In this document: one piece after another, positions 20,040 through 48,873 of the stretch
How positions within the stretch are numbered: position 1 is the stretch's first letter
Layout of the letters: the number at the start of each line of letters is the position of its first letter
Source of the DNA: Vitis vinifera
Taxonomy: Eukaryota; Streptophyta; Magnoliopsida; Vitales; Vitaceae
Direction: 5' to 3'
Assembly (NCBI RefSeq): GCF_030704535.1
Contig: NC_081807.1
Span: 4,753,001 to 4,817,000, forward strand
Length of the DNA stretch: 64,000 nt
Translations under genes and position numbers: made by a program
The notes under the pieces: generated by a model
Database searches by the model: none
What the model saw: only the letters and a program-made list of their open reading frames with translations
Told to the model about the DNA's origin: nothing

Positions 20040-20042
20040 AAA

Positions 20043-22779: not shown

Positions 22780-23045
22780 GAAAATTTGGAAAAAAAATAT
22801 ACTAGAGAAATAGAAAAATTAGCTTACAAGTTCTTGGAACTCATCTCCTTAAGCTTAGGCTTGGTGGGGGATCGGTTGAATGAATTCTTCGAAGGCTAAT
22901 GCTTCATCCGACTCAATCACCATCCGCCATGCTCGTGGCTGGAACTCGCTCTCGGTGTGGGTTGGCACAAGAAGGAAAGGGTTTCACTTCCATTCTTCTT
23001 CTTACCGGCGCACCATGTGAATGTGAAGCCTTCGAGCTGACCAGT
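22780..23045 (+). pseudogene. 2OG-Fe(II) dioxygenase relic, exon 2 start fused to exon 3
   Basis: After an intact-looking TTTTCAG acceptor (22779) the frame reads like the start of dioxygenase exon 2: a YTREIEKLAYKFLELISLSLGL stretch (conserved in the intact gene as YAREMEKLAFKLLGLISLSL). It then passes a TAA, an FIRLNHHPPC-like segment and an ALGVGWHK segment where the iron-binding HxD should be. There it jumps straight to exon 3 (RVSLPFFF, matching RFSIPFFF), deleting the rest of exon 2, intron 2 and the third iron ligand. It is more diverged from the intact gene than the pseudogene at 24123, so it represents an older paralogue. Confidence 0.82.
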
Positions 23046-24020: not shown

Positions 24021-24030
24021 CTATAAAAAC
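24021..24030 (+). promoter_or_regulatory. TATA box of the dioxygenase pseudogene
   Basis: CTATAAAAAC, about 100 bp before the ATG. The aligned position of the intact gene reads CTACAAAAAC. Confidence 0.6.
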
Positions 24031-24122
24031 CACCTGCCGAGTTGCCCAAGTCCTCTAACCATCTTCACCTGCAGCTACCAGTGCATAATTGCCATTTCTA
24101 AGTTCTAATCACTACCACAGCC

Positions 24123-25331
24123 ATGGGAGAGGTCGATCCAGCCTTCGTCCAAGACGCCCAACATAGGCCTAAGCTCGCTGTTATCGAAGCTGAAGGCATC
24201 CCCCTCATTGATCTCTCTTCCGCCAATGCTTCCAATCATGTTTCTCAAATAGCTGATGCATGCAAGAACTAGGGCTTTTTTCAAGTCATCAACCATGGGG
24301 TGCCCTCGGAGTCTCGCCGGAAAATTTGGGATGCCGCGAGGAAGTTCTTCGCTCTGCCAGTGGAGGAGAAGAGGAAGGTGAGTAGAGATGAGGTGAATCC
24401 TTTTGGGTACTTTGATACTGAGCATACCAAGAACGTTAGGGACTGGAAAGAAGTCTTTGATTTCGTGGTGAGAACCCCCGCCTTCGGCCCTGCTTCGGAT
24501 GATCCTGACGACAAGGAGCTCATAGAGCTGACCAATCGGTGGCCTCAGTACCCTCCTGAATTAAGGTACAAATTTCACCAGCTAAGGCACAGTCACTACA
24601 GTGAATTACTTAGTTTTTTTTGTTCTAATTGAACTGATTTATACAGGGAGGTCTGTGAAGAATATGCGAGAGAAACGGAAAAACTAGCTTTCAAGCTGAT
24701 GGGACTCATCTCTCTGAGCTTAGGTTTGCCAGAAAACAGATTCAATCTTTTCTTTGAAGAATCAACGAGCTCCGTCCGCTTCAATCACTACCCACCTTGC
24801 CCTGTCCCTCACCTAGCTCTGGGCGTTGGTCACCACAAGGATGTCGGAGCCTTAACCATCCTTGCCCAGGATGATGTCGGAGGGTTGGAAGTAAAGCGAA
24901 AAACCGATGGAGAATGGGTTCGAGTGAAGCCCACCCCAGATGCTTATATCATCAATGTTGGGGATATAATTCAGGTACCACCCAAGAACTTTGAATTATA
25001 AGCACCTGCTTATCAGTTATTTGGCTCACCGAATTTTGCACCTATTTGGCTAATTATACTGATATTAAACCAGGCTTGGAGCAACGACACTTATGAGAGT
25101 GTGGAGCACAGAGTGATACTGAATTCAGAGAGGGAAAGGTTCTCGATTCCGTTCTTTTTCAATCCCGCGCACCATCTTTGGGTGCAGCCCTTGGAGGAGC
25201 TGACGAAAGGGGAAAAACCAAAGTATAGAGCATACAACTTGGGAAAGTTCTTGGCTACGAAAAAGCGCAGTAATCTTAAGAAGCTTGGTGTGGAAAACCT
25301 CCAAATTTCTCATTTCAAGGTATCAGAGTAA
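24123..25331 (+). pseudogene. 2OG-Fe(II) dioxygenase pseudogene, nonsense codon 50
   Basis: Same three-exon structure as the intact gene at 32868: exons 24123-24565, 24647-24974 and 25074-25331, all GT-AG, with identical exon lengths (443, 328, 258). Codon 50, the Trp of the conserved WGFFQVINHG block, is TAG (24270-24272). The rest of the frame is intact. The HxD iron ligands (HKD), the distal His (VEHRV) and the 2OG-binding RFS are preserved, though the first residue before HKD is His instead of Arg and Gly after it is Val. A downstream Met is available, but it would skip the conserved N-terminal core. The canonical TATA box is retained. It is either a young pseudogene or an allele requiring readthrough. 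Confidence 0.9.
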
Positions 25332-25549
25332 AAAGGTCGGTGGGACATTATCTATCCGTAATCAATAAGCGCTTGTTTTAGCTCTCTAAAGCTTACCATG
25401 TGGTATATACGATACGTACGTGGTGAATTTGGAGGTTTGGTGTGAAAATAATAATGTAATTTGCTTGATAAATAAGCAGCAATGCATGCTGCATTAATGG
25501 AATCATCATTTTCTTCCTATTCTAGGAAGAGAATTATTAAGATAAATGA

Positions 25550-25933
25550 TGTTAACCAAATCACACACACATGTATAAGCAGAGAGAAAAAAAAAAAAAA
25601 TTTAGCATGGTTTGACGATCAATTTGATCCCTACATCAATGGAGTACACCAACACTCAACAATCCACTACAAAAGGAATGAGAAGGAGTGCAATGGCAAA
25701 GCTCTCAAAAAACTTCTCAATTGCTACTTCACTCATTAAAAAATAAAACCCTAAAACATAAAAGGGTTAAAATATATAATAAGATTAAACTCGTCAATTA
25801 TTACATAAAAACAAATAAATAAATTCTCTAGAGAGCATTGCGCCCTTCAACCCCTATGAGCTAATCGGCTAGCTTGACCCTTACCATCCTAAGTGAAGCA
25901 TAACAAAACTAATTCAAGCTTCACAATCCAACA
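25550..25933 (-). repeat. 3' LTR of the minus-strand copia element
   Basis: Read on minus it starts TGTTGGATTGTGAAGC directly after the polypurine tract and ends GGTTAACA, 384 bp. The host 3' flank of the dioxygenase pseudogene continues at 25549, where AATGA would be the target-site copy. Confidence 0.75.
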
Positions 25934-27980
25934 ATCTTCCACTTGAAGACTAAAACACAAGTAAACATTCTCCTTCAATGATTAATGGGTATGAGGGTGC
26001 ACTCAAACAACCTATTTTCACGATCTTGACCAATTGAAGTTGCACACAACTCCAGTTTTTCTGTTATCACTATTTTGGTTAACATGTTAACTAGATTCTT
26101 CCTATCTTGTATCTTCACAAGTGTTAACACCCTATCTTCAAGCAAAAACCTGATGAAGTGATAACAAAGTGTAATATAATTAGTTCTTGAATGAAATGCT
26201 GAATACTTAGCCAAATGTATTGCACTTTGGCTATTACTATGCAAAACATTCATATCTTGTTTGAATCCCAACTTTGCTAACAAACTCTACAACCAAATCA
26301 TTTCTTTACTAACTTTTGTGATAGTCACATATTTTACTTTAATTGTACATAAAATAACAATCTTCTACAATTGAGAAATCCAATTAATAGCAGTAGTACC
26401 CAAAGTGAACACATACCCTATAGTACTTTTCCAATTATCTATCTCATTGGCAAAATCAACATCCACATATCCTTCCAATTTTAACTCACTCCTTCTGAAA
26501 TGTAGACACTTTTTTGTAGTACCATATAAGTACCTAAGCATCCATTTCACTGCTTCGTAATGCTACTTACTTGGATTTGGCATAAATATGCTCACAACTT
26601 CCATTGCATAGGCAATGTCTAGTGTCGTGCATATCATAACATACATCAAACTTCCAATGGCTAAGGCATATGTGACCTTTGCCATGAAGTCTCTTTCCTC
26701 ATATGCCCATGGGCAATGTTTAATTAGACAACTTGAAATGATTTGCTAATGATGTTCTAACTACCTTAACATTACTCATGTCAAATATTTGCAATACTTT
26801 ATGAATATATATACTTAGCCTAAGATAACCACAAGATGCCTGTTTATTTGTCTCTACTAATCTTCATCCTAAGTACCTACTTTGTTGCGCCCAAGTCCTT
26901 CATTTCAAATTTAATAGACAACTATTTCTTCAACTTGTTAATTTCATCTAAATTTGTGTCAACTACTAATATGTCATCAACATACAGTAACAAAATAATA
27001 TAGATAGAACCAACCTTTATGAAGTAACAACAATGGCCTGCATTGCAGTTGAGATACCCATTCTTTTACAGAAAGTGCCAAATATTCTATACCATTGTTT
27101 GGGGCTTGTCTTAAACCATACAGACTCTTAGTTAATTTGCACACCACATTCTCTTTACCCTTCACTACAAAACCCTCTAGTTGTTGCATATATATTAATT
27201 TCCCCCTCCAAATCACCATAGAGGAAAGATATCTTCACATCTAATTGCTTTATATGTAGACTCCCTATCGCTACAATACTCAAAACAGATCGAATAATAG
27301 TTAGTTTCACAACTAGAGAGAAAATGATTGTATAGTTAATCATTTTTCTTCTGCTAAAACCCGTTTACCACCAATCTAGCCTCATATCTCTTAGAACCAT
27401 CATGTTCCTACTTAATTTAATACACCCACTTATTATGAAGAACTTTCTTACCCACTAGTAACTCGACTAGCTTCCAAGTCTGGTTAAGAATAAGAGACTT
27501 CATTTTGTCTTTCATTGTAAGTTCCCACTTGCTATTATCTTCCATATGATATGCTTCATCATAACATTTTGGTTCACCTCCATCTATTAATAGCAAATAA
27601 TTTAAATACTTCCTATTTGGTACATGTGGCCTGTTAGATCTCCTCAAAGTAGGAATTGAAACTAGATCTTGTGATATATTAACATCCTATGTAGTATTTT
27701 CCTCAATCTAATGATTCTGACCTGTCTTATTTGTCATGTTATTCTATGGGACATCATCTAGCTCAAAGTAAATAGGTTCAGGTTGTACCAAACTATTGAA
27801 ATGTATTGCATCTCTCTACTTATACAAAACTTTATCATTAAATATGACATCCCTACTTCTAATCACTTTCCTATTCTGGTCATCCTAAAACTGATAATCA
27901 AAATCATTAACACCATAGCTAATGAAAGTACATTTTAGTGATTTAGCATCAAGTATGTTTATGTCATGATCACTAATATG

Positions 27981-28005
27981 TATATATATATATATATATA
28001 TATAT
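27981..28005 (+). repeat. (TA)n microsatellite
   Basis: A 25-base TA run. Exactly the same length is found at 60466-60490, which bears on the age of the segmental duplication. Confidence 0.9.
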
Positions 28006-29174
28006 GATACACAACCAAATACCCTTAAATGAGAAAACTTTACCTTTTTTCTAGTTCACACTTTTTTCGATATTTTGTGATCCAAGTAAGTTGACGGTCC
28101 TCAATTGATCAAGTAAGTTGTTGTGTTGATTGCTTCTACCTAGAACTCCTTTGAAAACCTTGCTTGTATACACATGTTTTTTTCTCTTTCAATGAATGTC
28201 TTGTTCATTCATTCTACTATACCATTCTGGTAAGGTGTCCTTGGCACGGTCTTCTCCAATTTAATTCCATTTTCATAATAGAACTTCTTGAACTCAAAGT
28301 CTTCATACTCCCTACCATTATCAAACTGCAACTTCTTGACTCTCATACCTGTCTTATTCTCCATCATTATTTCCATCTCTTGAATACATCAAACACTTCT
28401 CATTTGTGTATCATAAAGTATACTCACACTTTCCTCAAATGATCATCAATGAGGGTCACAAAATAGGATCTTCCACCGATAGATGAAACTGAAGCAAGTC
28501 CCTAAACATTTGTATGAACTAACTTTAGTTTTGCTTCTTTTGGAGTTCTTCCAACTTTCTTAAAGCTAACCCTTTTTTGTTTCCCAAGTATGCAACTTTC
28601 ACACATGTTAATGTCAACTTACTTCAAACCTAACAACTTCCCATTCAAGTGTATAATTTTCAGCCCATCATTACTCATGTGACCAAGCCTCTAATGCCAT
28701 AAATTCGAATCTTCTTTGCTCTCAACAAGGGCAATAAACTCACAACCATCCATTGTCATGTAAAGAGTATCATTCTTCTTACCATGGCAAATAGCTATCT
28801 TTCGCTAACTACCCAATGGAAATAAAATTCTCTCTCGGGTTTGAAATGTGCCTCACATTATCCAAATTTCATACAAATCCATTCAATTTGATCTACACTT
28901 CACCTATGCCAATAACAACACATGCTTGGTCATCACCTAGATACTTCATCCCTAGATTACCTGAGACATAATTCTCAAATAATTCTCCATTTGAGGTAGC
29001 ATGGAATGATGTCCCTGAATCTAATACCCACTATTCTGTTGTTCTCTCCAAATAGCAAATAAGAGCATCATCTAATTCTTTTGACACAACATTCGCATTG
29101 GTCTTGTTGTCACCATTCTTATCCTTCTTGGCAGCCTTGCACTCATTTTTATAATGTTCCTTCTTTCCACAATT

Positions 29175-31179
29175 TGACTAATCTTCTCTATTATCTAAAA
29201 TACTAAGCCTTTTTATGTAACAACTTTGGTCAAGAAAAAAACTAGAGAAAGGGTCACTACGACTTTTATAATACTCTGGATATTATCCTTAGGGACTAAC
29301 TTATGGAATTTGTCAATACTAGGATAAATGAATCGTTTTTATTTAAATCCTAAAGTGAAAAACAATATGTGAATTAACTTTTATGAAGTGAAACTAAGTA
29401 AAAGAAGCTAAATTAATAACAAAACGAATATTGATTTTTAATTTAATTGATTTAAATTTGAGGTTTTCCACAATCTAACTTAAAATGTAGAAATAGAGAT
29501 AACAAAGGTTTCTTAACTAGAGTGATCTTAAGGTTTTGGAATTCTTGGTCGCTTACGATCAACTTGAGTCGTACCCTATAACTCAAAATTACATCTAAAA
29601 CCTTTTCTTTTTTTTTTAACAAAAAACAAATTCTGAAAACCATCAAATGAATGAGATTATTATCAATTTAAGGTTTGGCTTTTTAACATTTCCTACTTCT
29701 TATAGCTTTGTTTTGGGGCAGATAACTATAAGGAAAATCAGGATAACTAATGATCAAGAGTTACCAAGAATCACTAGTATTGAATAATAACCTACTATAT
29801 TATTCTCTAAACTAACTCACAATGATAGGATAAAAAATTAATAAATTGTAACTCAACCATTAATTAATCTTATTGTTATAATAATTTACCTAATGTCCCT
29901 ATAAGTTTTCTAACCATTAAGTTTTTATGTTTCAAGTCCCAAGATAGCTTTTTATCCTTTGTTGGGGGTAATGTCACATTCACAATCCATAATAGGCTAA
30001 AAATTCATAATTTGAATCAAAGAAAACTAAAAACAATATATTCAATAAAGAACGAAAGAAATAAACCAAAGTTCTTGTATTCTTCCCCACAAAATGCCTA
30101 ACTCTTGGAAAATCACCTAAACTCTAGAACTAAAAGAGTTTATATAGTAACTTTAATGACCTAACATGTGGTACACTCTCATTGACCACTTATTATAATG
30201 AAAATTCATAAATAACCTTAAAAAAAAAACCCAAAAATTACGAGTTCTAAATGAGTATGATGCATTTTGAATTGGATAGAGACATTTGAAACTCGTTTTG
30301 ACATGTCTTGGAGCTCAAAATCGGTCACTAGTGGTTGAGTTCGATATTTGGGTGAGTTCCAAATCAATTTTGAACTCATAAGTGGGAAATAAATGGTCCA
30401 ATTTGAAGTCAACAAGGTGAATTCAAAATTCACAATGAATTTTGAACTCACTCATTGCCCATGCATGTTTGTTTGGCTTTGAAATGTATGCCTCTTGTTT
30501 GAAACAAGTAGAGAGATTCAAACTTAGCCTATTCCAAAAGTTTTATTTCATTCCTTTGAGTTTTAAATGGACAAAAATCATTTCAAATCCAAGTTACCAA
30601 TTTTGAACTTAGTTTTCCTCTCCAACCAATTTGCTTTAAATGTGCATAACTTCCTTATTTACCTCTAATTTGCACATCTTTTGAAGTTTTGAATTCTTAA
30701 CTTCTCAAGTTTCAAAACAATATATAGCTTGCCTAAAATGGACTTTGGGAAATGCTCCAAATTTCATCTTAAAGTCAAAGTACATGTTACCACCAGATTT
30801 TGAATCCCAATTTCCATACAAACTTGATGAATTTGGCTTCATGTCTCATTTTCTATGTTTGTATGCCTTATTTCTTACTTCATAATGGTCATTCCTTATT
30901 TCTCAAACTCGTGATATCCTCATCTTGCTTTTCCTTATATTTCATGAGTCTTGACTTGTTAATTTTCTCATTTAACCCCATCTCATTCTTTCAAAATCTA
31001 AACTGATTCAATTTGTACTCTTTTCTTCCCTTAAACCTAAGATAAATCTTCAAATACAAGTTAAACTCATGGTTAAGGCCATAGCATCGATTTGGGTAGA
31101 GTCGGATGATTTGAATGTCTTATGGTGCATGAATCATATCAAATATGTGTTATTGGAGCACATATTTTAGCTCTAATCA
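29175..31179 (-). mobile_element. Solo LTR nested in the copia zinc knuckle, 2,005 bp
   Basis: Flanked by the direct repeat CAATT (29170-29174 and 31180-31184). Termini are TGACTAATC on the left and TAATCA on the right, so the ends are TG...CA. Removing the insertion and one CAATT rejoins the two halves of the copia CCHC knuckle coding sequence. No domain or primer site is inside. Orientation is inferred from the minus-strand start TGATTAGAGC. Confidence 0.8.
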
Positions 31180-31690
31180 CAATTCCAACATTTGATATCT
31201 TTCTTACTCGTCTAATGTTAGGAATTTTTGGAATTTCTAGATTTCAACCTATCATTCCTCTATTTGGATTTATCACGCCTATTACCTTTATTTTGATTTC
31301 TACCTTTGCTCTCCATGTTTAATGTTGATCATGAATTGGAAAAACCTTCTTCATGCTTCCTAATCTCCTCAGTTATAATCATGTATACTACTTTCAAAAA
31401 CACCAATTTTGATTTTCTTAATGAACTACTGATTGAAGTGATTGTGTTTTTCCAACTCTTAAACAATTAACCGAGGTTTAATAAGGCTTGAATCTTATCA
31501 TCAAATTTAATAACAATCAAATTTAATTAATTTGTGATCTCATTAAATTCGTTCAAATGCTGCTTGAAATTCTCATTCTCGAACATCTTTAAATTAAACA
31601 ACTTTTTAATTAAGTGTACCTTATTTGTTGTAGAAAGTTGTTCATACATATTGGGCAGCCATGAGATCTAGAGAAGTCCTTGTGTGAGGA

Positions 31691-32764
31691 TGAGAGCAAA
31701 TGGCTAACTAATGATTTAATTAATTTATATTGTTATAAGACATTTTTAATCCTACCTTTTTCTTGCTAAAAATTCTACTTTTTTTAAACTCTTGCATTTT
31801 TCTTGAACATTTTGGACTCTTCTATTTTCTTTTTTATTTTTTTTTTAAGATCTTTTTTGTTTCTTCTTACTTGTCATGAAACTTCCACATTAATTCAAGA
31901 GAAAAGAAAAATTCTAACAAATTTCAAATCAATCTAACTATTATTTTCTTCTTTTTAACAAATTATAATTTCACCATTCTTGTGTTTGTTTTTTCCACAT
32001 TTCATGTATAATAAGATAACCAAATGAAGGATACATTTGGAACCGTTACCCAGAATAATTTTTTGTTTCTGGGAATAAAGCAATATGAAAATACTTTGAT
32101 TTTCAATTGTTTCTAAAACATGTTTTTGAAAATTGTCATGACAATAAGGCATTGTTGATAACTTATTTTTAGTTGTCGTTTTACCTTTTTTATAAAAAAA
32201 AATTGTTTAAAAAAAAGAATAAATACAAAAAATGATTGAAAATAAAATATTATATATAAAAATTATTTTAAAAATATTAAAAAAAAAAAAAAGTTTATAA
32301 TAATATAAGTTTTTAAATAAACCTTTATTGTAAAAACATTATAAAAGCGTTTTAAAAATGGTTTTTAAACTTAAAAAAAAAATATTTTTTAAGAATCATT
32401 TTTAAAAGTGTTTGTAAACAATTTATCTTATCATATCAAATTGATAACCTTTACACTCGTTGACTTTGACCTAGAATTCAAAAATATTTGTGACACCATC
32501 TTATTTAGTAATCAAACACTGATCGACTAAGCGAAAGGTGTCTTTGATCAGAGCATTAGACTCCAATTCAAATACGGATCAAACATTTGAACGTGGAGGG
32601 AGCTGTCGGTAAAATCATTGAGAGAGATTCCCTTTGGGACTGCAGTATCACTTGACCAATTATCATTAATATATGCGCAATCCATGAGGTCACACCCTCA
32701 ACCAAACCTTAAAACGTAACCCAAATTATGTCCAGGTTCAATGTACTAAACCAACCCCACCACA
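31691..32764. other. Upstream region of the intact dioxygenase gene
   Basis: AT-rich, no gene. From 31691 it aligns with 23630-24020 upstream of the pseudogene, with extra A/T-rich sequence at about 31850-32450 that has no counterpart there. Confidence 0.6.
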
Positions 32765-32774
32765 CTACAAAAAC
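32765..32774 (+). promoter_or_regulatory. Degenerate TATA box of the intact dioxygenase
   Basis: CTACAAAAAC at the position where the two pseudogene copies have CTATAAAAAC, 103 bp before the ATG. The T-to-C change weakens the TATA consensus. Confidence 0.45.
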
Positions 32775-32867
32775 TACCTGCCAAGTGGCCCAAGTTCTCG
32801 TCACCATCTTCACCTGCAGCCACCAGTGCTTAACCCCCATTTCTAACTTCTAACCACTACCACAGCC

Positions 32868-34076
32868 ATGGGAGAGGTCGATCCAGCCTTCATCCAAGAC
32901 GCCCAACATAGGCCTAAGCTCGCTGTTATCGAAGCTGAAGGCATCCCCCTCATTGATCTCTCTTCCGCCAATGCTTCCAACCATGTTTCTCAAATAGCTG
33001 ATGCATCCAAGAATTGGGGCTTCTTTCAAGTCATCAACCATGGGGTGCCCTCGGAGTCTCGCCGGAAAATTGAGGATGCGGCGGGGAAATTCTTCGCTCT
33101 GCCATTGGAGGAGAAGAGGAAGGTGAATAGAGATGAGGTGAATCCTTTGGGGTATTATGATTCCGAGCTTACCAAGAACGTTAGGGACTGGAAGGAAGTT
33201 TTTGATTTCGTGGTGTCAACCCCCACCGTGATCCCTGTTTCGCCTGATCCTGACGACAAGGAGCTCAAAGAGCTGACCAATCAGTGGCCTCAGTACCCTC
33301 CTGAATTAAGGTACAAATTTCACCAGCTAAGGCAGAGTCACTACAGTGATTTACTTAGCTTTTTTGTTCTAATTGAACTGATTTATATAGGGAGGTATGT
33401 GAAGAATATGCTAGAGAAATGGAAAAATTAGCCTTCAAGCTGTTGGGACTCATCTCGTTGAGCTTAGGTTTGCCGGAAAACAGATTCAATCTTTTCTTTG
33501 AAGAATCAACGAACTTCATCCGCCTCAATCACTACCCACCTTGCCCCATCCCTCACCTAGCTCTGGGCGTTGGTCGCCACAAGGATGGCGGAGCCTTAAC
33601 CATCCTTGCCCAGGATGATGTTGGAGGATTGGAAGTAAAGCGAAAAACCGATGGAGAATGGATTCGAGTTAAGCCCACCCCAGATGCTTATATTATCAAT
33701 GTTGGGGATATAATTCAGGTACCACCCAAGAACTTTGAATTAGTACATGCTTATCAGTACAGTTTGGCTCAAGGAATTTTTCACACCCATTTATCTAATT
33801 ATACTGATGTTAAATCAGGTCTGGAGCAACGATACTTATGAGAGTGTGGAGCACAGGGTGATGGTGAATTCAGAGAGGGAAAGGTTTTCGATTCCGTTCT
33901 TTTTCAATCCCGGGCACCGTGTTTGGGTGCAGCCCTTGGAGGAGCTGACGAAGGGGGAAAAGCCAAAGTACAGAGCATACAACTGGGGAAAGTTCTTTGC
34001 TACGAGAAAGCACAGTAATTTCAAGAAGCTTGATGTGGAAAACATCCAAATTTCTCATTTCAAGGCATCAGAGTAA
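32868..34076 (+). CDS. 2-oxoglutarate/Fe(II)-dependent dioxygenase (DOXC type), intact, three exons
   Basis: Soluble plant oxygenase expected to couple 2-oxoglutarate decarboxylation to hydroxylation or another oxidation of a small metabolite; the substrate is unknown. Exons 32868-33310, 33391-33718 and 33819-34076 (GT-AG introns of 80 and 100 bp) give 342 aa, normal for the family. The N-terminal DIOX_N region contains IPLIDL and NWGFFQVINHGVP (49-61). The C-terminal 2OG-FeII domain has NHYPPC (194-199), iron ligands His211-x-Asp213 and His269 (VEHRV), and 2OG-binding Arg279-x-Ser281 (RFS). From memory it resembles the Arabidopsis At3g19000/At3g19010 group. It is the only undamaged member of four dioxygenase copies in the first unit. 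A methylesterase follows 1.3 kb downstream on the same strand. The TATA box looks weakened. Confidence 0.9.
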
Positions 34077-35378
34077 AAGGGTCAGTAGGACATTATCTAT
34101 CTTTAATCAAGAAGAGCTTGTTTTAGCTCTCTGAAGTTCACCATGCGGTATATAGGATAAGTACATGGTGTGAAAATAATAATGTAATTTGCTTGATAAA
34201 TAAGCAGCAATGCCTGCTGCCTTAATGGAATAGTCATTTTCTTCCTATACCAGGAAGAGATTTATTAAGATCAATGGATCCTAAAGAAGCATATAGCACC
34301 ATTAATTTATGAGGAAATTATTACAATCACCAATAATTTATGAGGAATTTGACAGCCATGGGAAAGGTTAATCCGACATTCATCCAACACTCAAAACAGA
34401 GGCCAAACTCATGCTGCCACCGGAACTTAAAGCGAGGGATACAATTAATGTTGGTGGGTAGTGTTCATGTCATATCAAATTAAATTTATGGATGGATACT
34501 CTGACTAAATAAGTCAACTCAAATATAACATAAATAATAATTAAGTTAAAAGTATAAACCCAAATATAATTTAATTATTAAACATGTAACAAGTTGAGTA
34601 ATTTATTTAATAATCCGGTTGAGTCAGGTTTTATTTAAGTCAATATAATTAACTTTTTAATTTAATTGTTTTCAACTCAATTAATCATAATTATTTTAAT
34701 ACATAATTATTAAATAGATGTACTTAAGTCAAATTTGTGTTGTAGGTCTTAATCCAAAAACAACTTCTTTATTAAAGGAATCATGCTAGTCTACACAGCT
34801 TTGACCAATTCAAATGGGTGAAAACATCATGTTTCAGTCAGATTGAGGTATCAAGCTTGACCAAGCCTACCCCAAAGTACCTTCAACCCGCCATGGGAAA
34901 GGTTTGGCTAACATTTTATATGTCCAAAAACCTTTACTGCATAACTTACTTATATTAATTGAAAGATACATCTCAAGATTTGCAGAAGCAAAACCAAAAA
35001 TGCCAAAAACAAATTGAGATCAGAACTCAATCCACAGATCACATTGGGAAAAGAAAATGTCTGCAGTTACAAACCAATCCGGACAAGAGAAGAATTCAAG
35101 GGGAGGAGTTAACTACTTCACTCTGTATATTTCATTCTTTCTTCCTTTGCATAACTTCTGTATCATTGAAAAAGAGTGTGACGCAGGTGCATGTGTCATC
35201 TTTTAAACCCTGGCAATCAATGTGTACATGTTCTTGAATCCTTAATCCTTATTTTATTTCTAGAGTCAATTTCACAGGAAAATTTTTAATCCATTAGATT
35301 AGTAGTTGTAGTGAAAACCTACCCAGTTGTGCCCTTTAAAATGATGGGTGCTGACCATCTCTGTAACAGGAAAGGAGT
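34077..35378. other. Dioxygenase-methylesterase spacer
   Basis: No gene supported. It aligns throughout with 1595-2893. The first 200 bp also align with the 3' flank of the dioxygenase pseudogene (25332-25545). AATAATAATGTAATTTG at about 34172 is a plausible polyadenylation region. An open frame at 34959-35237 is shifted or shortened in the other copy. Confidence 0.6.
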
Positions 35379-36441
35379 ATGGAGGCAGGGAAGAAGCATA
35401 TGATTTTGGTTTCCTTTCTGATTTTTCTTGTTTCTTCAGTGTATCCAATGGCATCAGAGGGGAGACAGGCTAATCCCGTCAAGCACTTTGTTCTAGTTCA
35501 TGGGTCTTGCCATGGTGCCTGGTCTTGGTACAAGATTGTGGCACTACTAAAATCATCTGGCCACAAAGTCACTGCTCTGGATTTGGCTGCTTCTGGAATT
35601 AACACAAAACAAGTGGGTGATCTGCGATTAATTTCTGAGTATTTCCAGCCACTGAGGGACTTCATGGAGTCACTCCCTGCAGATGAGAGGGTGGTTCTTG
35701 TTGGACACAGCTCGGGTGGGTTGGCCATTTCTCAGGCCATGGAGAAGTTCCCAGAAAAGGTTTCTGTAGCTGTTTTTGTCACTGCCTCAATGCCTGGTCC
35801 CACTCTCAACATTTCCACACTCAATCAAGAGGTACTTCATACATTCTATTTTTCTTTTACAGAAATTTACTTGTTGATTAAGAGGGGAAGGCTTCCCCTG
35901 TTTCTGACTTTTAGCCTGGTTTCTACTTCTTATTGAAGACATCCAGGAGACAAGGTCCTCTACTAGACAGCCAGTTCACATATGATAATGGCCCCAACAA
36001 TCCTCCCACCACTTTCACCTTTGGCCCCTTGTTCTTATCACTGAATTTGTATCAGTTGAGCCCAACTGAGGTGAGAACTCCATTAATTAAGGCCTTACAA
36101 CCAAAATTATGAGACCTTTCATTGTCGTTGTTATATCATTTTGGGCATAAATTTTCCAGGACTTGGCACTAGGGACTATGTTGATGAGACCCGTACGCTT
36201 GTTCAGTGAAGAAGACACGTCAAATGAGCTCATGTTGTGGAAAAAATATGCCTCGGTTAAACGTGTCTTTATTATTTCTGAGGAAGACAAGGTGATGAAA
36301 AAGGATTTTCAACTCTGGATGATCCAAAAAAACCCACCTGATGCTGTTAAAGAGATTAAAGGATCTGATCACATGGTCATGATGTCTAAGCCAAAAGAGC
36401 TTTGGGTTCACCTGCAGGCAATTGCTGAGAAGTATTCTTGA
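35379..36441 (+). CDS. Methylesterase B/A hybrid (MES/SABP2-type), with hydrophobic N-terminal extension
   Basis: Exons 35379-35831, 35939-36070 and 36160-36441 give 288 aa. The catalytic triad is Ser111 (GHSSGG), Asp238 and His266. Predicted to hydrolyse methyl esters of plant hormones; substrate unknown. ATG 35379 adds 23 residues (MEAGKKHMILVSFLIFLVSS...) before the Met equivalent to the start of methylesterase A. This is a basic then hydrophobic leader, like a signal peptide, unusual for this mostly cytosolic family. Starting at Met24 would give a normal 265 aa enzyme. The nucleophile elbow has Ser where methylesterase A has Leu. Up to 36328 the gene differs from A at scattered sites; from 36329 to the stop and beyond it is identical, so the gene looks like a crossover product. 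The exon 2 acceptor region reads TSRRQ against SLRRQ in A. Confidence 0.86.
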
Positions 36442-36758
36442 TGTTGTCATACCATTATGTGGAAAACGACACAATTGAATAAGCAGGAAAAGAAAAAAGT
36501 TTCAATTGAAATTGGTACTTTGAACTGTGGATTGATTCAAAGAAATTTTTACTAATAGAAACATCATGGTTCAGTTGTATCAATTATAAATGTAATGCAA
36601 TATACAACTATATTTCAGGAGTTTTAAACAGTGTGCAGAAAATCAAACTGAAGTTCAAATCATCCCAAGCTTCATATCTGTCTTTCTTCTACAGGGTCAT
36701 AAGCCCTGGATTTCAGATCTAAAATCAAATTTAAAGGGAAAAGAAAGAAAGTGAAGAT

Positions 36759-36892
36759 AAGGTGTTTTATCTTGGGAAAGTCAAGGAGGGCATCAAGGCT
36801 TTTCAGCTATGGATGATTGAAAAAGGAACAAAGAAAAACAGCCAGTGGGTGTGGAAGAGATCAAAGGACCTGATCATCCTACGTTGAAAAAA
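36759..36892 (+). pseudogene. Methylesterase exon 3 fragment, copy 2
   Basis: Identical to 4274-4407: frameshifted FQLWMIEK and VEEIKGPDH segments downstream of the hybrid methylesterase. Confidence 0.7.
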
Positions 36893-37522
36893 GAAAGGGA
36901 CCGGAGCAATTAGTATTCTTCCATTGCCAGTTCATCAAAGGAATCCAATGATTGGTTCTAAGTCCAAATATGACATGTGGATCACATGTATCACCTCTAT
37001 GATTAGCATACAAAAAAATTATAACCCCCATAGAAATCAAAGCTAATATAAATATGATCATGATAGCAACGTGTAACAGTTCATAATTGACCAAGACTAA
37101 TGTTTCCCAGGAAAAGGAAGAGATCCTGGATACGATTTCTTTCTTCAAATCCACACTATGACATTCAAAATTATCAAAATTTCAGTGTTAGGTATTTTAA
37201 ATGATATTACTACATTTTTAATCACAGACCCAATGCTTCTAAGGCATGTCTAATAATGGGGGCCTTAAAATAACTTGACTTTATTAAAATAAGGGGTTGC
37301 ATTTTATATGGCAGATAAATAATCATGGCCATGGAGAACCCAAGATTTGCTTTGTTCTTATCATCCATCATATATAGAAGCTTTTGCCCCAAAAGATTCA
37401 TATTAAGATTTTGTGGGTCTTCATACTCTGCAACCGCGCAGATGCACCAAATTAATGAAAATCAGGTCATCTTCCATTTTTGACAAAAGAATGATGGAAA
37501 CAGACTTTTATTTCATCTGATT
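36893..37522. other. Intergenic, copy 2
   Basis: Same sequence as 4408-5037; no gene supported. Confidence 0.5.
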
Positions 37523-38093
37523 TCAATTAATAATCACCATTATAGCTTTTCTTTCTCCCGACTTTATTTTCCCTCTGATCATCGCTCTTCTCCTTGATCC
37601 ATCCAACAAGATTATTACCAAAGGAACAACACATAAAATCGTGTGAAGCAAGCAAATAATCACCACCCAAACAACTGAAGATTCATTTCCAAAGCTACCA
37701 GCAAATGAATTTGCAGAAGATGAAGCTCACCCAGAACCAAAATTAATCGAAGTTTACAAAGATGTTATATGTACTCTCTCCTATCAAACATTCACATCTT
37801 TTAGCTGGTAGTACGACACTTTCCAAGGCAAAATCTATCAAGACAAAAAAGAAACCTCAACATATACAATGGCCAATGGGTATTCTGGTAAGGAAGGAAA
37901 CTACAAGACGAAGAGTTCAAAGAAGAAAACCGATAAAAGGGACAGAAACATCATTGCCAACTGAGGCTGAATTTGCCAAAAGCGGCGTGGCATTGTGGTT
38001 GATGACTAGCCCGACTGCCTCCGCGAAAACAAGCACAAACTCTACTGCCATTTTCAGCAGTGATATACACATTTCCAGTCTCTGAATCACCAT
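37523..38093 (-). CDS. Candidate small single-pass membrane protein, copy 2
   Basis: Identical to 5038-5608. Inferred exons are 37931-38093 and 37523-37725 on the minus strand, 121 aa. It has an N-terminal amphipathic part and a C-terminal hydrophobic segment followed by a basic patch. The identity gives no independent evidence that it is coding, because the whole block is identical. Function unknown. Confidence 0.42.
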
Positions 38094-38187
38094 TACAGCA
38101 AGAGAAATGCTTATATACTCTTGGCTATACTGTTCTCTCTTTATCGCATCCCCGCGTCTCTCTCTCTATTTGAGTCTTGGTCTCCAT

Positions 38188-38203
38188 TAATATATATATA
38201 CTA
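38188..38203 (-). promoter_or_regulatory. TATA-like tract, copy 2
   Basis: Same TAGTATATATATATTA as at 5703-5718, about 100 bp before the ATG at 38093. Confidence 0.3.
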
Positions 38204-40405
38204 CAAGCTGTTGATTTGCCATGGCGATAATCAAAGGCAGGTTCAAAAATGGCCTTTGGACTCCTCCAAGGGACACCCCACCTTTCTCTCTCAAACAGTC
38301 AAACCCATATACAAATAATATCGGCCCACGCTTTTCTTACACTCAAGTTGGCGATTGGTGATTAGGCATATGAGTGAGTAATCCGATCTGAACACAGGAC
38401 AAGCTTCAAGATATGAAATCTGCGTGTATTTTTATATGACTGCTCGATGGATTTGAAGGTTGAGTTATCATTGGAAACAGTCACATGGAAACAAGAATGA
38501 TAGACCCAGCTGATTTTCACCTTAAATAGTATTACCCTGACAATGAAACCATTACCCAAGTGGGTTTATAATTATTCCACAGCTTGTCTCAGGACCCTTA
38601 TCCACCCCTTCGAAAAAAAAAAAAAATCTTTTTGAAAAAAGTGTTACAACCCTAGATAAGGAGTGGATAAGGATGTGAATTATTGAGATGGCAGCAGATT
38701 TATGGTTAGGAATAAGGGAAATAGTGCCACAGAAATGCAGATCAGACTGTATGGGAGGTGTCAATTTCAGGGGTGGTTCAGAAAATAAATAAATAAATTT
38801 TTTTTGTCTGTGAACACTTAATTGGTTCTGGCTTTCTTGTGTTATTCCATTTTGTCATTTTGCTTCAAAGAAACATTATCAATCTCTAGGCTGGGACCTT
38901 TGCCTAAAGAATCTGAGCAATATTGTTAATCGACATGCATTATTTAATGCTGAAATCGTAACATTTCTTTCAAATCTTGAAAGAAAATGGTATATGCTTG
39001 GAACATCTCGACTCTAATTGCCTAGAATAAGTATGAAAAGTTCTGCTATTTTTGGAATTATAGTTTAGCAATGAGTATAGCAACTTACAAAGAGAGGTCG
39101 ATTTTTTTGATGGGTTGAAGTGAATTTTGAGTCTACAAAGGATTATAGGTAGCTATTTAGAAAAATAGTAAGATATCGAATTTCAAATTAAAATATTTAA
39201 AAATATGTAATGAAATCTAAACTATTGAATAAAGATATAAATAATTAAGATTGAGATATAAATAAATATGATGAACATATAAAGAAATGAAATCAATGTA
39301 TGAACAAATAAGATCAAAGTACAATGTAATAAGAGTAAGGTATAAAATAATAGGCCTCATATGTGATACAAATGAATGAGACTTGATTACAAAATAATGA
39401 GATATAAATATTACCACTTGATTAGTAATGTGTTTTAGTAAGTCTAAAAACTTTCTTATATATATAATTTTTGCAAAATTAAAAATAATTTTCTCATGAA
39501 TTCAGTCTATTTATCCCAGACAACACCTATATATATATCAATATGTGTCACATGATTTTATTTTATTTTTCTAATATGAAATTAGTGTTAACACCTTTAA
39601 TTTGTTGAAAAATTCATTGAAGTCCATCTATGGAGATAAAATTTATTGACTCATTGAAGAATTCATATGTTAAAGTCCTAGAGTTTATAAAATGTTCATT
39701 CTAATTCTAGTGGGACTTTGAAAGCAACCAACAAAAGAAATCTTGATATGGTTCTCAATGATATAAAGAGACTTTAACTTGATGAAAATTTTACTCAAAG
39801 GTTGATTTCCTTGATTAGAACTCAAGATGCATCCAGATTGGGATAAATGTGTTTAAAGGATCCAAGTATAAAGAAAATGCGCAAAGTGAGTATGATTTAG
39901 ATACTTTTAAGTTTGGTAATACTTGGTTTTTGTAATTGATCATTATACAATGGATTGTTTAATAGTGAGGATGACTTGTGGTTTTTCCTTTGAATATAGT
40001 TTACATGTAACACGTGATTATTTTTATTTTATTTATTTGTCACATACTCATATTACTATAGTATTTTGTTTTAATTATATTTGTGTAATGGATTGAAATA
40101 TATTTTATTTAAAAGTATATTAATTGATAGGTAGGTGAATCAATTAATTGGACATCAAATAATTTTATGTATAGAATGTTGAATTACTAATTTTCCTAAA
40201 AGCTTAAACTTACAAGATTTAGGTTCAATATACATATCATGCTTTTTAACACCCTCTCTTATGTGTGGTCCCATATTTACATGTGAAGAGACAAACAAAC
40301 AAACAAATGCAAATAGCCTTTTCTAGACTTCCAAACATGCAAATAAGGAACAAACATGCGAATTGTGAAGAGGTGGCTCGAACCCACAACCCCCAGTCAA
40401 ACCAA
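38204..40405. other. AT-rich intergenic sequence, copy 2
   Basis: Same as 5719-7920; no gene or complete transposon recognised. Confidence 0.5.
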
Positions 40406-40541
40406 GCTCTGATACCATGTTAAATGGGTTTGAATAGAATTCATTCGCAAAAGCTAGCTTGGAGAGGGTGCCCAATCCACATATATAAACAACATAATAA
40501 CCCAGTAACTTGGCGATGTGAAACAAATTCAACTTCTAACA
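40406..40541 (-). mobile_element. TRIM-like LTR with tRNA-Met primer-binding site, copy 2
   Basis: LTR 40418-40541 and primer-binding site 40406-40417, identical to 7921-8056. Confidence 0.72.
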
Positions 40542-42893
40542 TAGAAGATTAAAATTATAAATACAAAGTTAGAAAATTTTCATTTATAAGAATATGGTAT
40601 TACAATTTGTGTAACTCCATCTTTATGAGATTTCATTTGTACATAAAGTTTATGACTAATAGAGGAAGATGAAAAAGTGTAATCTATACAATTACATGAA
40701 TGAATTCAAGTTGGTAGTTTACCATTGTCCATTAATCTGTGTATAATGTTTATAAATAATGAGTATAACTCTCATATAATCTTTTATGAGAATATTAAGA
40801 GTTAAAAATCTTTTTTATAAAGTTAAGGTCCTAAGTCGTATTGCATTCTTATGTTTTTAGTTGTTTTACTTATAACAACATATACCACACAATTGACTCA
40901 TCTACTAAATGAGAATGGTGAGTTGAAGACCTTGACTCAACAATTCACAAAATGACTCAAATTCACATTACAAGTGTTATCAGTATTATGGATTAAGACA
41001 AGAATATAATTATTATTTTTTCATTTCTTTATTTCTTATACCTATTATGCATTATGCATCCAGATTGATTTTCCAAAATAATTATTTCACATAAAGTTTA
41101 TTTAACAAATGATATTAGTGTCAATCAATTTTGGATCATAAAACATATTTTTTGAATTTTGGTTATTATTTGATCTTATGGACTACTAAAGGATATATAT
41201 GATATGATGAATCTGAATAATGAATCAATATACATTTCCGATGTTTCGTAATTTTAATCATATCTATTGCATAATTTTACGAAAGTTGCAAAAATATGAT
41301 TTGTAATTTAAACATGTAATAATAGAAATCTTAAGAGATAGTTTTATCTAGTATGATGTTTACTTGTTTGTTTATGGTTGATCATGTTATATGTTGTTCA
41401 ATTTATGAAACAAGTGTTGATTAATCCAACCGATGATCATCACTATGTTTGATTATATAATAGAAGTTCAATAATAAAATATTGATGAAGTTTTTACCCA
41501 ACAGGATTAAACTTTTTTACGTTTAATACTTTCATTTTAATAGTTATTATCATATTTATATAATTAATAAATTATTATAATAGTTAATATAACCTTAATT
41601 GTTGTTTTTAAATTAATATTCTAAGACATCAAAGTTTCCTTTCAAATAAGATTAGAAATGCTTCCCTTTAAGGAAATCACATTTCTAAATCATGGTTATT
41701 AGCTTGTTGTAGGAACCCTGGTTAGTGTACGTTGTGGTTCTCCCAACGGGATAAAATCTATGTCCTAGTTAAGCTCATCAATTTTCAACTCTTTGGACCC
41801 AAAATCTATGTCCTATTCAACAAGGCAAATATCCCGAGATCAAAACAAACTCAACTACTGTTAGCAATCAAGCTCATATATCTAATTTATCCTTCCAAAA
41901 CAGATTAGTCAATTCAAAACCAAAAATGATACTACAAGTTACTCAAGATTCATTCCACTGATAACTAATATAGTTGTTATTGAGGAAATTGGCAAATGCT
42001 AACAAAGATCTATATATGATAACAAGAATTACAAACAAGAGATCACTAGTAAATTAAACAACATACCCTTAAATTTGATTTAACTAAAAATCCAATAATC
42101 AATTCACTTAAACAAAGTACATGTGTATAACTACTACACAATAATAAATATTTAGAAGAGTCAGACAACATCTACAAAGTCCACATAAGTAGAAGCTAGA
42201 ACTCCTAGTCCAAAGATGCCTTGGCTTTGGGTGGTGTCAATCTGCTTGTTGGACATGGGAAGCATATTCCTAACAATGCCTGTATGCCCGCTTTAGGCAC
42301 TACATCTAGAGACCCTATTGCTTCCATTCCTTGAGCGGTGACGATCAATAAAATAATCAACCTAAAAAAACACAAATACAATAGGAAAAGCTAAGGTGCA
42401 TTCACTTGTAAAATCTAGAAAATCTTACATAAATTACCTTGAATGAATTCACATGTTAACAATAAGTTCTTCACAAAAACTCAAGGAACCAGCCCCAAAA
42501 ACTAGGAAAAGGCTCTTTGCTTCTGACCTTGTCCACCTCAAGAAACCTCTCCTACAATCTTTTTTGCAAATTCACTATTGATCAAATGTAGCTCAATCCA
42601 ACATTTTTTTTTCCAGTTTCTCACCCTTAGTTCCCACCATTTTGTGAATCCAGAACCTTTAGGCTTAAATGAACAGAAAAATTCACCTTGATGTGATGTT
42701 GCTTCCTCTACATCTTCTGCATAGGGATGAAAAAAAATAAAATAAAATAAAACACACACACACAAAGATTAAAAGAAACAAACACATAAATAAAAACCAA
42801 ACCAAAGACCCAAAAAAAATCAAAAAAAAAAAAAGAAAGAAAATATATGCAATTTTATTATTTATCATTAATCATATTTGTACCTATATGGAA
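40542..42893. other. AT-rich intergenic sequence, copy 2
   Basis: Same as 8057-10408; nothing recognised. Confidence 0.5.
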
Positions 42894-42958
42894 GGTAAAG
42901 GTAGTACCTAAAAAAGGTAAAGGTAGTACCTACAGAATGTAAAGGTAGTACCTATAAG
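42894..42958 (+). repeat. Short tandem repeat, about 22 bp, copy 2
   Basis: Three GTAAAGGTAGTACCTA units, identical to 10409-10473. Confidence 0.8.
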
Positions 42959-43464
42959 ACATGTAGCACACATGTACATAAGTTCCTGACTTACTAGAAG
43001 TGGCCATGAAACAATGGATTCGATCGTGCACCCAAGGTTGCAAAGGTAGTATATAAGGAAAGAAAAAGCAGTACCTAAGGAAGAGAATATAGTACCTTAT
43101 AAGGGTATGTCATCAATCAACTCCAATGTAAAATCTAGAGAGAAACTTATTGATCATCTTGTGGGCTTGGAACATAACGAAATACAAGCGTATAAACCAT
43201 ATTCTCTAGCCTTGGTACTGATAGAAAAGAAGTTAGGGTTGAGTTGTGGAGAAAAATCCAAGTTTGAGAAAAGATTTTAGTGAATTCTGAATCCCAACTT
43301 CAAAAATAGTCATAAAAAACTGTCATATGCCTGGGAGCATAAAGAAAGCATCCAAAAAGAAAAAAAATGTGAAATGAGCAAGTGAGTTTAGATAGAGCAT
43401 TGAGAGAGGATGCTTTATAGAGTATTTATCCAAGAAAAAAAAATGAGGGAAGGAGAGCATGGAG

Positions 43465-44281
43465 CTCCATCGCAAGAAAGCAAAAGAACAAGAGAGTGAT
43501 CCGCCAGCTTAGGCTGGAGGTGCTGGTGGTGTAGATGATCCAGGAAGCTGTGCACCAAACTACCTTAACAATGGAAAACTAATGGGGCAGACCCAGTAGT
43601 ATCTTCTCCAACCTTACCACTCACAGCCATCAAGTCGGAAGTTCCTTCGGAATCTACATACAAAGCGCCCACCACCATTGGCAAAGGAAAAACCAGATCA
43701 ATTTCAATGTCAAATCTTTATGTGACTGCTGCGGAACAGTGCGGGTTAAGGAGTCGGCCAACTTCATAAAATTGAGAACTCCGGGAAATTTCAGTGAAGT
43801 ATGAAGCGCTTTGTTGGGGGACCGTCCAGAGAATCCAGTCGTTGAGCCTCACCAGCTTGTGATGCCCCAAGTGTCACATTACAAAGGACCTGTGTACCTC
43901 CACGTGAAAAGAGTGACGATCCATGCAGTATAGGTAATTTGCCAGATTCACAATACAAAAGCCCAACTTCGTTGAGATGCCTTCCCTCTAACTCTATAAG
44001 TCTTTCTACAAGCTTCGTTATATAATTTTTACACCTTCACTGGGTCTTATCAAACACTCATTTGGCTCTAGTAGACAACACATTAAGAACATCCACATCG
44101 CGCTACTCACAGTACCATGTAGGTCAATCTTTAAGGATTTCTGCGACCCTTGTTGGCTCTAGACTGACAATGGAGAACTTGGAAAGAGGAGAGCGATGGG
44201 GGTTGAAGGAGCTGAGCAGACCATCGGAGATAGAACAAGGCAGTGGCTTCACTCGGATAACAGGCTTAATTTGACTGGCTC
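43465..44281. other. GC-richer, gene-like decayed stretch, copy 2
   Basis: Identical to 10980-11796, with protein-like stretches in shifting frames; family not recognised. Confidence 0.35.
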
Positions 44282-45225
44282 TATAACAACCGGGGTTTTA
44301 ATGACATGTCAGGATCAGAAAAGTTATCATAAAATTATTAGTCACATAGTAAAAAAAGAATGGCAAAATTCACATGTTAATATTTAATTGAAAGAAATTT
44401 TGAAAAAGTTAATAAAAAGTCAATAGTATAAAATTTTCGTCACATCATATGCAAATAGTAGGAATTTCAAAAATTAAATTTAAATTTGGAGAAAAATTCA
44501 ACCATCAAATAATTATTGATATTATTTTTGAAAAATTAAATATTAAGTATATTATGAGCATTAATTTAATTATAGAGAATTATAGTGAGAAAAACTTGGT
44601 AAAAATTTATATTATATCACATTGTTATAATGGATAATTAAAAAAATTGAATTTAATTTTATAACAAATCAATAATTTTTATAATTAGAATTAAACCTTA
44701 TAGAATTAAAAAAACATCAAATAAAATTGAATTGAAATTAAATTAAGAGTAAATTATGATATATAAATTTAGGGAATATAAAAGGCTAGATTAATTAAAT
44801 ACGAATTTAGTGAATTTAACTTTTGAAATTTTGATTCAATTCAGAAATTTGACAAATGAAGTAAATTAAATAAAAGTTATACCAAAGGTTGAGAATATGA
44901 TTTTTATAAATTGAATGACTAAATAACTAATGGAATTAAGTTTCAGAATATTGCTTAAATTTTATTGATAAATAAATATTGGTAAAATTAAAGGATTAAA
45001 TATTATTATGAATTTCAGCTTCTTGATGTTGAAGCATTATTTTATGTTTCAGATTTTTTCTAAAATTGATTTTTTTTAATACATAATTAATGAAATCATG
45101 TCCTAAATGAATTTCATAATAAAAATGTTTCAAGTAATTAAAGTCAAATTATTTTTTTTGAAAAGTAGACTTATAGTAAATTTAATTAAGAATATAGTAG
45201 TATTTTTCGTAAGATAGTAAATCAT

Positions 45226-45547
45226 ATGTTGAGTATAAGTTATAATTGTAGAATATGAAATAAAGAATAATAATTTGATTTATTAAGAAAAATATGAAAT
45301 TATATTTAAGTAGATTTTTGGATTAAAATAAATAAATTTCTTAACATGGTGTGGTTGATAAAGAATATTAATAAAAAAAGAGGGGGGTATGTTGAGTATA
45401 AGTTATAATTGTAGAATATGAAATAAAGAATAATAATTTAATTTATTAAGAAAAGTATGAAATTATATTTAAGTAGATTTTTGGATTAAAATAAATAAAT
45501 TTCTTAACATGGTGTGGTTGATAAAGAATAATAAAAAAGAAAAGGGG
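45226..45547. repeat. 163 bp tandem duplication, copy 2
   Basis: Units start at 45226 and 45389, as at 12741-13062. Confidence 0.9.
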
Positions 45548-45599
45548 GAGGGGGGAACAGTGGCTTAAAGTTGAAAAGAGAAAGAAAAGAGAAAATGAA

Positions 45600-45626
45600 A
45601 ATAATAATAATAATAATAATAATAAT
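45600..45626 (+). repeat. (AAT)n microsatellite, copy 2
   Basis: Same length as 13115-13141. Confidence 0.9.
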
Positions 45627-46436
45627 AGGAATGTCTTGCGGAGAAGAAAGAAGAATATAAAAGATAGAAGAACGCGAACGGAAACACAAAGGAAAAGAAG
45701 AAACAAGGAAGGTGCAGCAGATATTTGGGTTGTCGTCCGACAAGCCAAATGAGTTCCGTTTTGCATGAGATTTTAGGAGAACACTCTATTTAACGTAAAG
45801 AACATTTTTATGGAGTCCAATTTTGGTTTTAATAGTTAGATTTTCATATTTGATGTAAGATGGTTTAACCCTAAAACTTTTATTTAATATTTTTCTTTGG
45901 AAACAAAATTACATATTATGTTTTTGGGAGATAATAAATGTTATTTGTATTATTTGGAGTCTGATTATGGTCAATGATAATTTTGATTAGTTTAAATGTG
46001 TATAGTTGTAGTACATTATATAATTACACTTTGATATATAATTGTGTTTTATTGACTTAGAATTTTTAATCTGTGTAGGTGTAAAACACCTTACTAAGCA
46101 ATGTGGAAATACTCATCCATTTATTTTCTAAAATTTTTAAATGCAAATATAGTTTCTAAGGAGCCATAGGAAAATTAGGAAGTGTTTCAAAAAGCAAAAG
46201 AATCATAATAATGGTTGTTTTTTAGTTATATTATATTTTAGCACATACTAATTTGATTTATAAGAACTTTCATAACTTAAACTATATTTTATTAATTTGT
46301 AAAACTTTTTTTGTAAATATTTGGGTTATCATTTTGGGTAATAAGATGTTTGACAGATTTATTATACTTGTGAATAAGTGATAGTGTAGTGGTTGATTTT
46401 TGAAAAATAAAATAAAATAATATGATGTAGTAAATC

Positions 46437-46558
46437 TTAGCTTAATAAATTTATTTGGGATTAGATGTTGTTTTATAAATATAAAAAAATCAAGTTATTA
46501 GCTTAATAAATTGATTTGGGATTAGATATTGTTTTATCGAGAAAAAAAAAATCAAGTT
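46437..46558. repeat. 61 bp tandem duplication, copy 2
   Basis: Units start at 46437 and 46498, as at 13952-14073. Confidence 0.85.
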
Positions 46559-46817
46559 ATCAAGATTGACAGCTAGAATGAATAGGTGTAACCCTTAATG
46601 CCAAACCTTTGACCTAGAGTCATAGGATAAGTTCACCCAGAATTTGGGTCGTGACAGGCTCTGCTTGCACTATTGTGATCACTCCTCTTGTCCGGCCATG
46701 AAAAAGCCCAACTTCGAAGGTCAAACTTTCTACTGTGAGAAGGATTGTGCAACTCATCTTTCTGATGCCACTGGGAGTCCTCATACCCAAATTTCAGCAT
46801 CTAACATAGTGGGTAAC

Positions 46818-48537: not shown

Positions 48538-48873
48538 GTAACCATCATTTAATACAAGTTCCTTTCTAGACAAACTATCTTGGGCAGATTCATCATTTCT
48601 CTTCCAGTCCCCACCCTCGGATGTCCATCATGCAAAAGTCAATAAAATCACCAAAGGCAAAGGTATACTCCTTATCAAATGATGTGTTTGACCTAAACTC
48701 CGAGGCTTCTTTTGATGTGAGTTCTGGGTATTTGAAAAAATCATATGTTCTTCGATCAAGTCATTCCTTAACGCGAGGTCGATGCCAGGATAAGCCTTCA
48801 GTTTCCCATTTCTTCCACTATGTATTTCTCAAACGACACCCCTCAAAGAAGATAAGGCAACGAGAAAAGAAAA

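What the first reader, a model, noticed from the sequence alone, without database searches (positions are those of the whole stretch)
35379..36441. Hybrid methylesterase formed by crossover inside exon 3
Differences between the two methylesterases are scattered through exons 1-2 and the first half of exon 3, then stop dead at 3843/36328, where the perfect 32.5 kb repeat begins. Non-allelic recombination between paralogue A and paralogue B predicts exactly this: a B-type 5' part joined to an A-type 3' part, followed by a second copy of the spacer.
Basis: inference. Interest (0 to 1): 0.75.

Follow-up and report, generated by a model that had tools for sequence, protein, structure and literature searches.

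The report
Grape gene duplicated by unequal crossover
In a grapevine chromosome, two neighbouring copies of an enzyme gene appear to have mispaired and recombined near the end of the gene, doubling a 32.5-kb block and leaving a hybrid gene between its two parents; it is a clean and young example of a familiar process, and the hybrid enzyme differs from one parent by a single amino acid.

Summary
The window lies on contig C3 of a 495.6-Mb genome, inferred to be the grapevine PN40024 T2T reference. Copies at offset 32,485 are identical from 3844/36329 to the window's end (27,672 bp); outside it the identity runs to 36424/68909, 32,581 bp in all. A dioxygenase and a methylesterase (B) follow at 65353 and 67864, exactly one period on.

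Aligned with A and B, the middle gene H is B-type at 80 of 80 diagnostic sites left of 36329 and A-type at 42 of 42 from 36425 on. The switch lies in 36329-36424, the longest A/B-identical tract (96 bp) of the aligned region. Trees of the two sides conflict. Best explanation: one recent non-allelic (unequal) crossover between A and B.

Two corrections. H is almost purely B: one residue differs (Ala284 against Asp284), plus A's 3' flank. And a HiFi-only assembly cannot count perfect 32.6-kb repeats, so copy number, and less likely the duplication itself, needs read support. The kind is known: similar grape chromosome 6 blocks are attributed to unequal crossing-over.

The parts
35379..36441 (+). 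Gene H, the hybrid methylesterase: exons 35379-35831, 35939-36070, 36160-36441; B-type up to 36328, A-type from 36425
36329..36424 (+). Crossover interval in H: 96 bp identical in A, H and B, the longest A/B-identical run of the alignment
3844..3939 (+). The same 96-bp tract in parent A (parent B has it at 68814-68909, outside the window)
2963..3956 (+). Parent gene A, methylesterase; the start codon used by H, B and E reads ACG here, so the frame begins at an internal ATG
3844..36424 (+). First copy of the duplicated block, 32,581 bp counting the shared 96 bp at its end
36329..64000 (+). Second copy of the block as far as the window shows it; it ends at 68909, outside the window
32868..34073 (+). 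Open 2-oxoglutarate/Fe(II) dioxygenase gene upstream of H (exon matches 32868-33311, 33404-33721, 33822-34073); identical copy at 65353-66558 upstream of B
24123..25328 (+). Second dioxygenase copy in the block, with a stop inside exon 1
56608..57813 (+). Duplicate of that broken dioxygenase, with the same stop
1402..1591 (+). Broken last-exon remnant of a dioxygenase upstream of A; shows that A and B descend from an older dioxygenase-methylesterase unit

Best explanation
An ancestral chromosome carried A - spacer - dioxygenase - B. B on one chromatid mispaired with A on another, and a single reciprocal crossover inside a 96-bp identical tract near the end of exon 3 joined B's 5' part to A's 3' part. 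The gain-of-copy product is A - spacer - dioxygenase - B/A hybrid - spacer - dioxygenase - B. Shown here: the order, the exact period, the single clean switch, the B-type third gene. Inferred: that it is a real chromosomal event and not an assembler walk; that it is very young (no difference in 32,581 bp); and that it took place between sister chromatids or homologues already identical at this place, because two random grape haplotypes would be expected to differ over such a length (recalled). H should act as a second dose of B, with B's upstream region and A's 3' flank.
For: Exact period and 32,581 bp identity. Parent B found where predicted, with the dioxygenase before it. H is B-type at 80 of 80 and A-type at 42 of 42 diagnostic substitutions, with no back-switch. 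The switch lies in the longest A/B-identical run, 96 bp; the next are 93, 93 and 92. Left trees give H+B (100) and A+D (100); right trees give H+A (100) with D (90); AU rejects H with A on the left (3.4e-131) and H with B on the right (4.7e-6, 6.2e-6). D and E are homologous on both sides, so A and B both existed before. A grape precedent of 33-55 kb blocks is attributed to unequal crossing-over (PMC3091711).
Against: The same sequence would come from an assembler walking the block twice; HiFi reads alone do not resolve duplications identical over tens of kb (PMC10462168), and the inferred source assembly was made from HiFi reads. No reads could be examined. That the switch falls in the longest tract is only consistent: three other tracts are nearly as long.
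Confidence: 0.8

Rival explanations
1. Assembly artefact: the real chromosome has only A - spacer - dioxygenase - B, and the assembler or a later join went through the block twice, switching from B to A in their shared tract.
For: The two copies are letter-identical over 32,581 bp. The inferred source assembly used about 42x HiFi reads and hifiasm v0.13, then reference-guided ordering and manual joining; repeats of this length and identity are not resolved by HiFi reads. False duplications in assemblies are a known problem (PMC9516828, search listing and start of abstract only).
Against: The A/B identity at the switch is only 96 bp between stretches that differ by 4.6% and 5.5%, too short for long exact read overlaps (inference), so junction reads probably existed. 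The line is about 99.8% homozygous and the nine heterozygous regions listed include chromosome 3 only at 9.4-9.9 Mb, not 4.75-4.82 Mb, which speaks against allelic copies laid end to end. One other close tandem pair that I looked at is 98.95% identical over 2 kb, not perfect (1 of 1).
Confidence: 0.14
2. Replicative template switch: a replication or repair fork that had copied through B resumed at A in the same register (break-induced or template-switching replication).
For: It would give the same product, and the junction is in register inside a homologous tract.
Against: No microhomology scar, inserted base or second junction; the whole exchange is a single switch inside longer homology, the usual substrate for crossing over.
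Confidence: 0.05
3. Gene conversion of the 3' end of a B copy by A, with an independent origin of the repeat.
For: Conversion is common in tandem arrays (general knowledge).
Against: A-type sequence after the switch does not end after a tract but goes on as a perfect copy of the whole spacer, and B-type sequence before it goes on through the whole block.
Confidence: 0.01

Closest known systems
Grapevine F3'5'H array on chromosome 6 (PMC3091711, passages read)
   Different: There the blocks have since been reorganised; here the last event is unmutated and its crossover can be placed within 96 bp, with both parents present.
Anti-Lepore haemoglobin and the CYP11B1/CYP11B2 chimaera of human genetics (recalled, no call)
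   Same: Gain-of-copy product of unequal crossover with the hybrid gene between its two intact parents.
   Different: Those hybrids change expression or protein; here the hybrid protein differs from parent B by one residue.
Unequal crossing over among Arabidopsis RBCSB genes on sister chromatids (recalled; the search found no held paper)
   Same: Paralogue-to-paralogue exchange in a plant gene array that makes chimaeric genes.
   Different: That was an experimental system; this is inferred from one assembled sequence.
Plant MES methylesterases (SABP2, PNAE, VvMJE1) and methylketone synthase 1
   Same: H matches methylketone synthase 1 (3sty, E 1.1e-94), SABP2 and PNAE in the PDB, and keeps the Ser-Asp-His triad that MKS1 has replaced by Ala and Asn (PMC11644291 passages).
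   Different: H, B and E carry an extra hydrophobic N-terminus of about 23 residues; A and D lack that start codon. Substrate unknown.

Membership tests
Unequal (non-allelic homologous) crossover product | Hybrid lies between its two intact parents | tested here: met
   A at 2963, H at 35379, B at 67864 in one orientation
Unequal (non-allelic homologous) crossover product | One switch from B-type to A-type inside shared homology | tested here: met
   80 of 80 and 42 of 42 diagnostic sites, switch within 96 bp
Unequal (non-allelic homologous) crossover product | Duplication of exactly the stretch between the parental crossover points | tested here: met
   32,581-bp copies identical and bounded by the A/B tract on both sides
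Unequal (non-allelic homologous) crossover product | Sequence trees of the two sides conflict in the predicted way | tested here: met
   the 113-bp right part of exon 3 taken alone is unresolved
Unequal (non-allelic homologous) crossover product | Junction present in DNA molecules (reads or PCR) | not testable with these tools
   no reads available
False duplication in assembly | Block k-mers more frequent in the assembly than in the reads; no junction reads | not testable with these tools
   no reads available
False duplication in assembly | Lies in a heterozygous region where two alleles could be laid end to end | tested here: not met
   Nine listed regions do not include chromosome 3 at 4.75-4.82 Mb; depends on my inference of the assembly
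MES methylesterase family | Alpha/beta hydrolase fold with Ser-Asp-His triad | tested here: met
   Pfam Abhydrolase_6 4.3e-20; Ser111, Asp238 and His266 aligned; by sequence only
MES methylesterase family | Hydrolysis of a carboxyl methyl ester | not testable with these tools
   needs an enzyme assay

The most novel reading that the evidence does not exclude
The duplication arose within recent cultivation or even within the PN40024 selfing pedigree, by unequal exchange between sister chromatids or already identical homologues, so that this dioxygenase-methylesterase array is a live copy-number polymorphism in grape whose crossover is placed within 96 bp of coding sequence; the true number of blocks may exceed the two that the assembly shows.
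Probability: 0.3. Interest if true: 0.5.

Novelty: new member of a known kind. Interest (0 to 1): 0.32.

Why it matters
It is a nearly ideal snapshot of one unequal crossover: both parents and the hybrid are present, the exchange is placed within 96 bp, and no later mutation blurs it. It shows how a tandem enzyme array in grapevine grows, and it is a good test case for whether long-read assemblies count perfect tandem copies correctly. In function it most likely adds one more dose of a dioxygenase and of a methylesterase, not a new enzyme.

Tried and rejected
Chance identity was rejected. Mismatches continuing past 36328 were rejected. Gene conversion as the cause of the breakpoint was rejected, because identity goes on through the whole block on both sides. 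A functionally new chimaeric enzyme was rejected: H and B proteins differ at one residue. A first gene model with exon 1 one base too short gave false frameshifts, corrected. A first DFR comparison pointed at a file that gave nothing; repeated.

Literature: ten searches. Of these, 18, 33, 46 and 51 were meant to find a report of this array or duplication; I recognised none in the rows listed, which are only the best-ranked rows (15 of 97). I read passages of five papers (PMC10199708, of it section 14 in full; PMC10462168; PMC11644291; PMC3091711; PMC10061021). The grape methylesterase family paper (VvMJE1, Zhao et al. 2016) was seen only as a reference. I do not claim that the duplication is unreported.

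Species and assembly are inferred; no tool names them. Lengths were read for 20 of 21 contigs (C17 left out): 18 long ones plus C20 of 770 kb and C21 of 132.5 kb. The total less those two is about 494.71 Mb against 494.87 Mb published; the longest read is 36.67 Mb against 36.68 Mb published. The Vitis vinifera DFR protein (2c29) matches on C18 with differences only at exon edges. HiFi read lengths are recalled; the term 'read length' does not occur in that paper's main text.

Full report
WHERE IT IS. The window is C3:4753001-4817000 of a 495,616,077-bp genome in 21 contigs. Contig sizes, total length and the Vitis vinifera dihydroflavonol reductase on C18, which differs from PDB 2c29 only at exon edges, fit the published PN40024 T2T grapevine assembly (494.87 Mb, longest chromosome 36.68 Mb; PMC10199708, passages and section 14). 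That name is my inference.

THE OBSERVATION. At offset 32,485 the window is identical from 3844/36329 to its end, 27,672 bp without a mismatch; the last mismatch is at 3843/36328, and 32 of 843 sites differ just before it. The neighbouring DNA shows that identity continues to 36424/68909, so the copies are 32,581 bp long and letter-identical. They include 18 homopolymers of 9 or more bases and three microsatellites of equal length, as found by my pattern.

THE PREDICTION. It is at 67864-68926 (C3:4820864-4821926), with a dioxygenase before it at 65353-66558. It equals the middle gene up to 36424/68909 and then differs, 16 substitutions in the next 405 bases compared without gaps. A whole-genome search with 401 bases across the junction found 5 matches, the five loci on C3; only H matched at 100% along the whole query (such counts are lower bounds).

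THE MOSAIC. The five methylesterase loci of the array are E (-98379), D (-39950), A, H and B in window coordinates. Left of the switch A and B differ at 80 of 1,726 compared sites and H is B-type at 80 of 80; right of it they differ at 42 of 770 and H is A-type at 42 of 42 (columns with gaps left out). The 96-bp interval 36329-36424 is identical in A, H and B and is the longest A/B-identical run of the alignment; the next are 93, 93 and 92 bp. Trees: left, H+B (100) and A+D (100); right, H+A (100) joined by D (90). AU tests reject H with A on the left (3.4e-131) and H with B on the right (4.7e-6 and 6.2e-6). A left tree that only moves D next to H+B is rejected by AU (0.00024) but not by the SH test (0.095); two of the four test trees are the same when unrooted and tie. 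The left part of exon 3 alone (169 bp) gives the same pairs (100 and 100); the right part alone (113 bp) is unresolved (48 and 34).

MECHANISM. Parents outside, a B-to-A hybrid between them, and duplication of exactly the stretch between the parents are the expected product of one unequal crossover between A and B. Both parents pre-date it, since D and E are homologous on both sides of the switch. No second switch or scar is seen. The exchange lies within the last 113 bases of the coding sequence. With no change in 32,581 bp, divergence is at most 9.2e-5 per site (95% bound), about 8,500 or 18,400 years at 5.4e-9 or 2.5e-9 per site per year (rates recalled). Two random grape haplotypes would be expected to differ over 32 kb (recalled), so both blocks probably came from one haplotype, by sister-chromatid exchange or from homologues already identical. 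That step is inference.

CONSEQUENCE. All five genes have open frames and GT/AG introns in the alignment, but A and D read ACG where H, B and E start, so they would begin at an internal ATG. H and B proteins differ only at residue 284, Ala in H, A, D and E and Asp in B. H keeps Ser111, Asp238 and His266 at the triad positions. The block adds one open dioxygenase (Pfam 2OG-FeII_Oxy 2.4e-34 and DIOX_N 7e-30) and one with a stop in exon 1. The likely effect is dosage.

THE MAIN RIVAL. An assembler that walked the block twice would give the same sequence. The inferred source assembly used about 42x HiFi reads with hifiasm, and a review says that duplications of the last thousands of years, identical over tens of kb, are not resolved by HiFi reads (PMC10462168, passages). 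So the copy number is not fixed by reads. Against a wholly false duplication: the shared tract at the switch is only 96 bp between stretches 4.6% and 5.5% diverged, too short for long exact overlaps, so reads with the junction probably existed (inference); and the locus is outside the nine listed heterozygous regions. One other close tandem pair, on C13, is 98.95% identical over 2 kb with 13 mismatches and one gap (1 of 1 looked at). I put the artefact at 0.14.

COMPARISON. Grapevine F3'5'H genes on chromosome 6 sit in 33-55 kb blocks attributed to unequal crossing-over (PMC3091711, passages), and terpene synthase copies are unequally spread over grape haplotypes (PMC10061021, passages). This case is a younger and sharper member of that kind.

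Noticed in passing
C3:4623001-4825000 around the window (window coordinates about -130000 to 72000): An array of five methylesterases and many dioxygenase copies and fragments, all in one orientation, in blocks about 90-95% alike: older rounds of the same kind of duplication.
   Followed up: partly
2890-2963 (gene A) and D at C3:4713050: A and D share ACG in place of the upstream start codon of H, B and E and so would lack the hydrophobic N-terminus.
   Followed up: partly
24123-24566 and 56608-57051: A dioxygenase exon 1 with an in-frame stop, carried unchanged in both copies of the block.
   Followed up: no
C3:4736370-4738378 and 4742768-4744776 (outside the window): Two 2,009-bp direct repeats, 1 mismatch, about 4.4 kb apart: looks like the two LTRs of a young retrotransposon.
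   Followed up: no
202-669: Reading frame that looks like a Copia-type reverse transcriptase fragment (by eye; no family search was run).
   Followed up: no
21284-22713 and 53769-55198: Minisatellite with a 41-base unit and higher-order units of 82, 123 and 245 bases.
   Followed up: no
C3 about 4748211-4748807 (outside the window): A dioxygenase copy whose first exon matches with an in-frame insertion of about 50 codons unlike its relatives.
   Followed up: no
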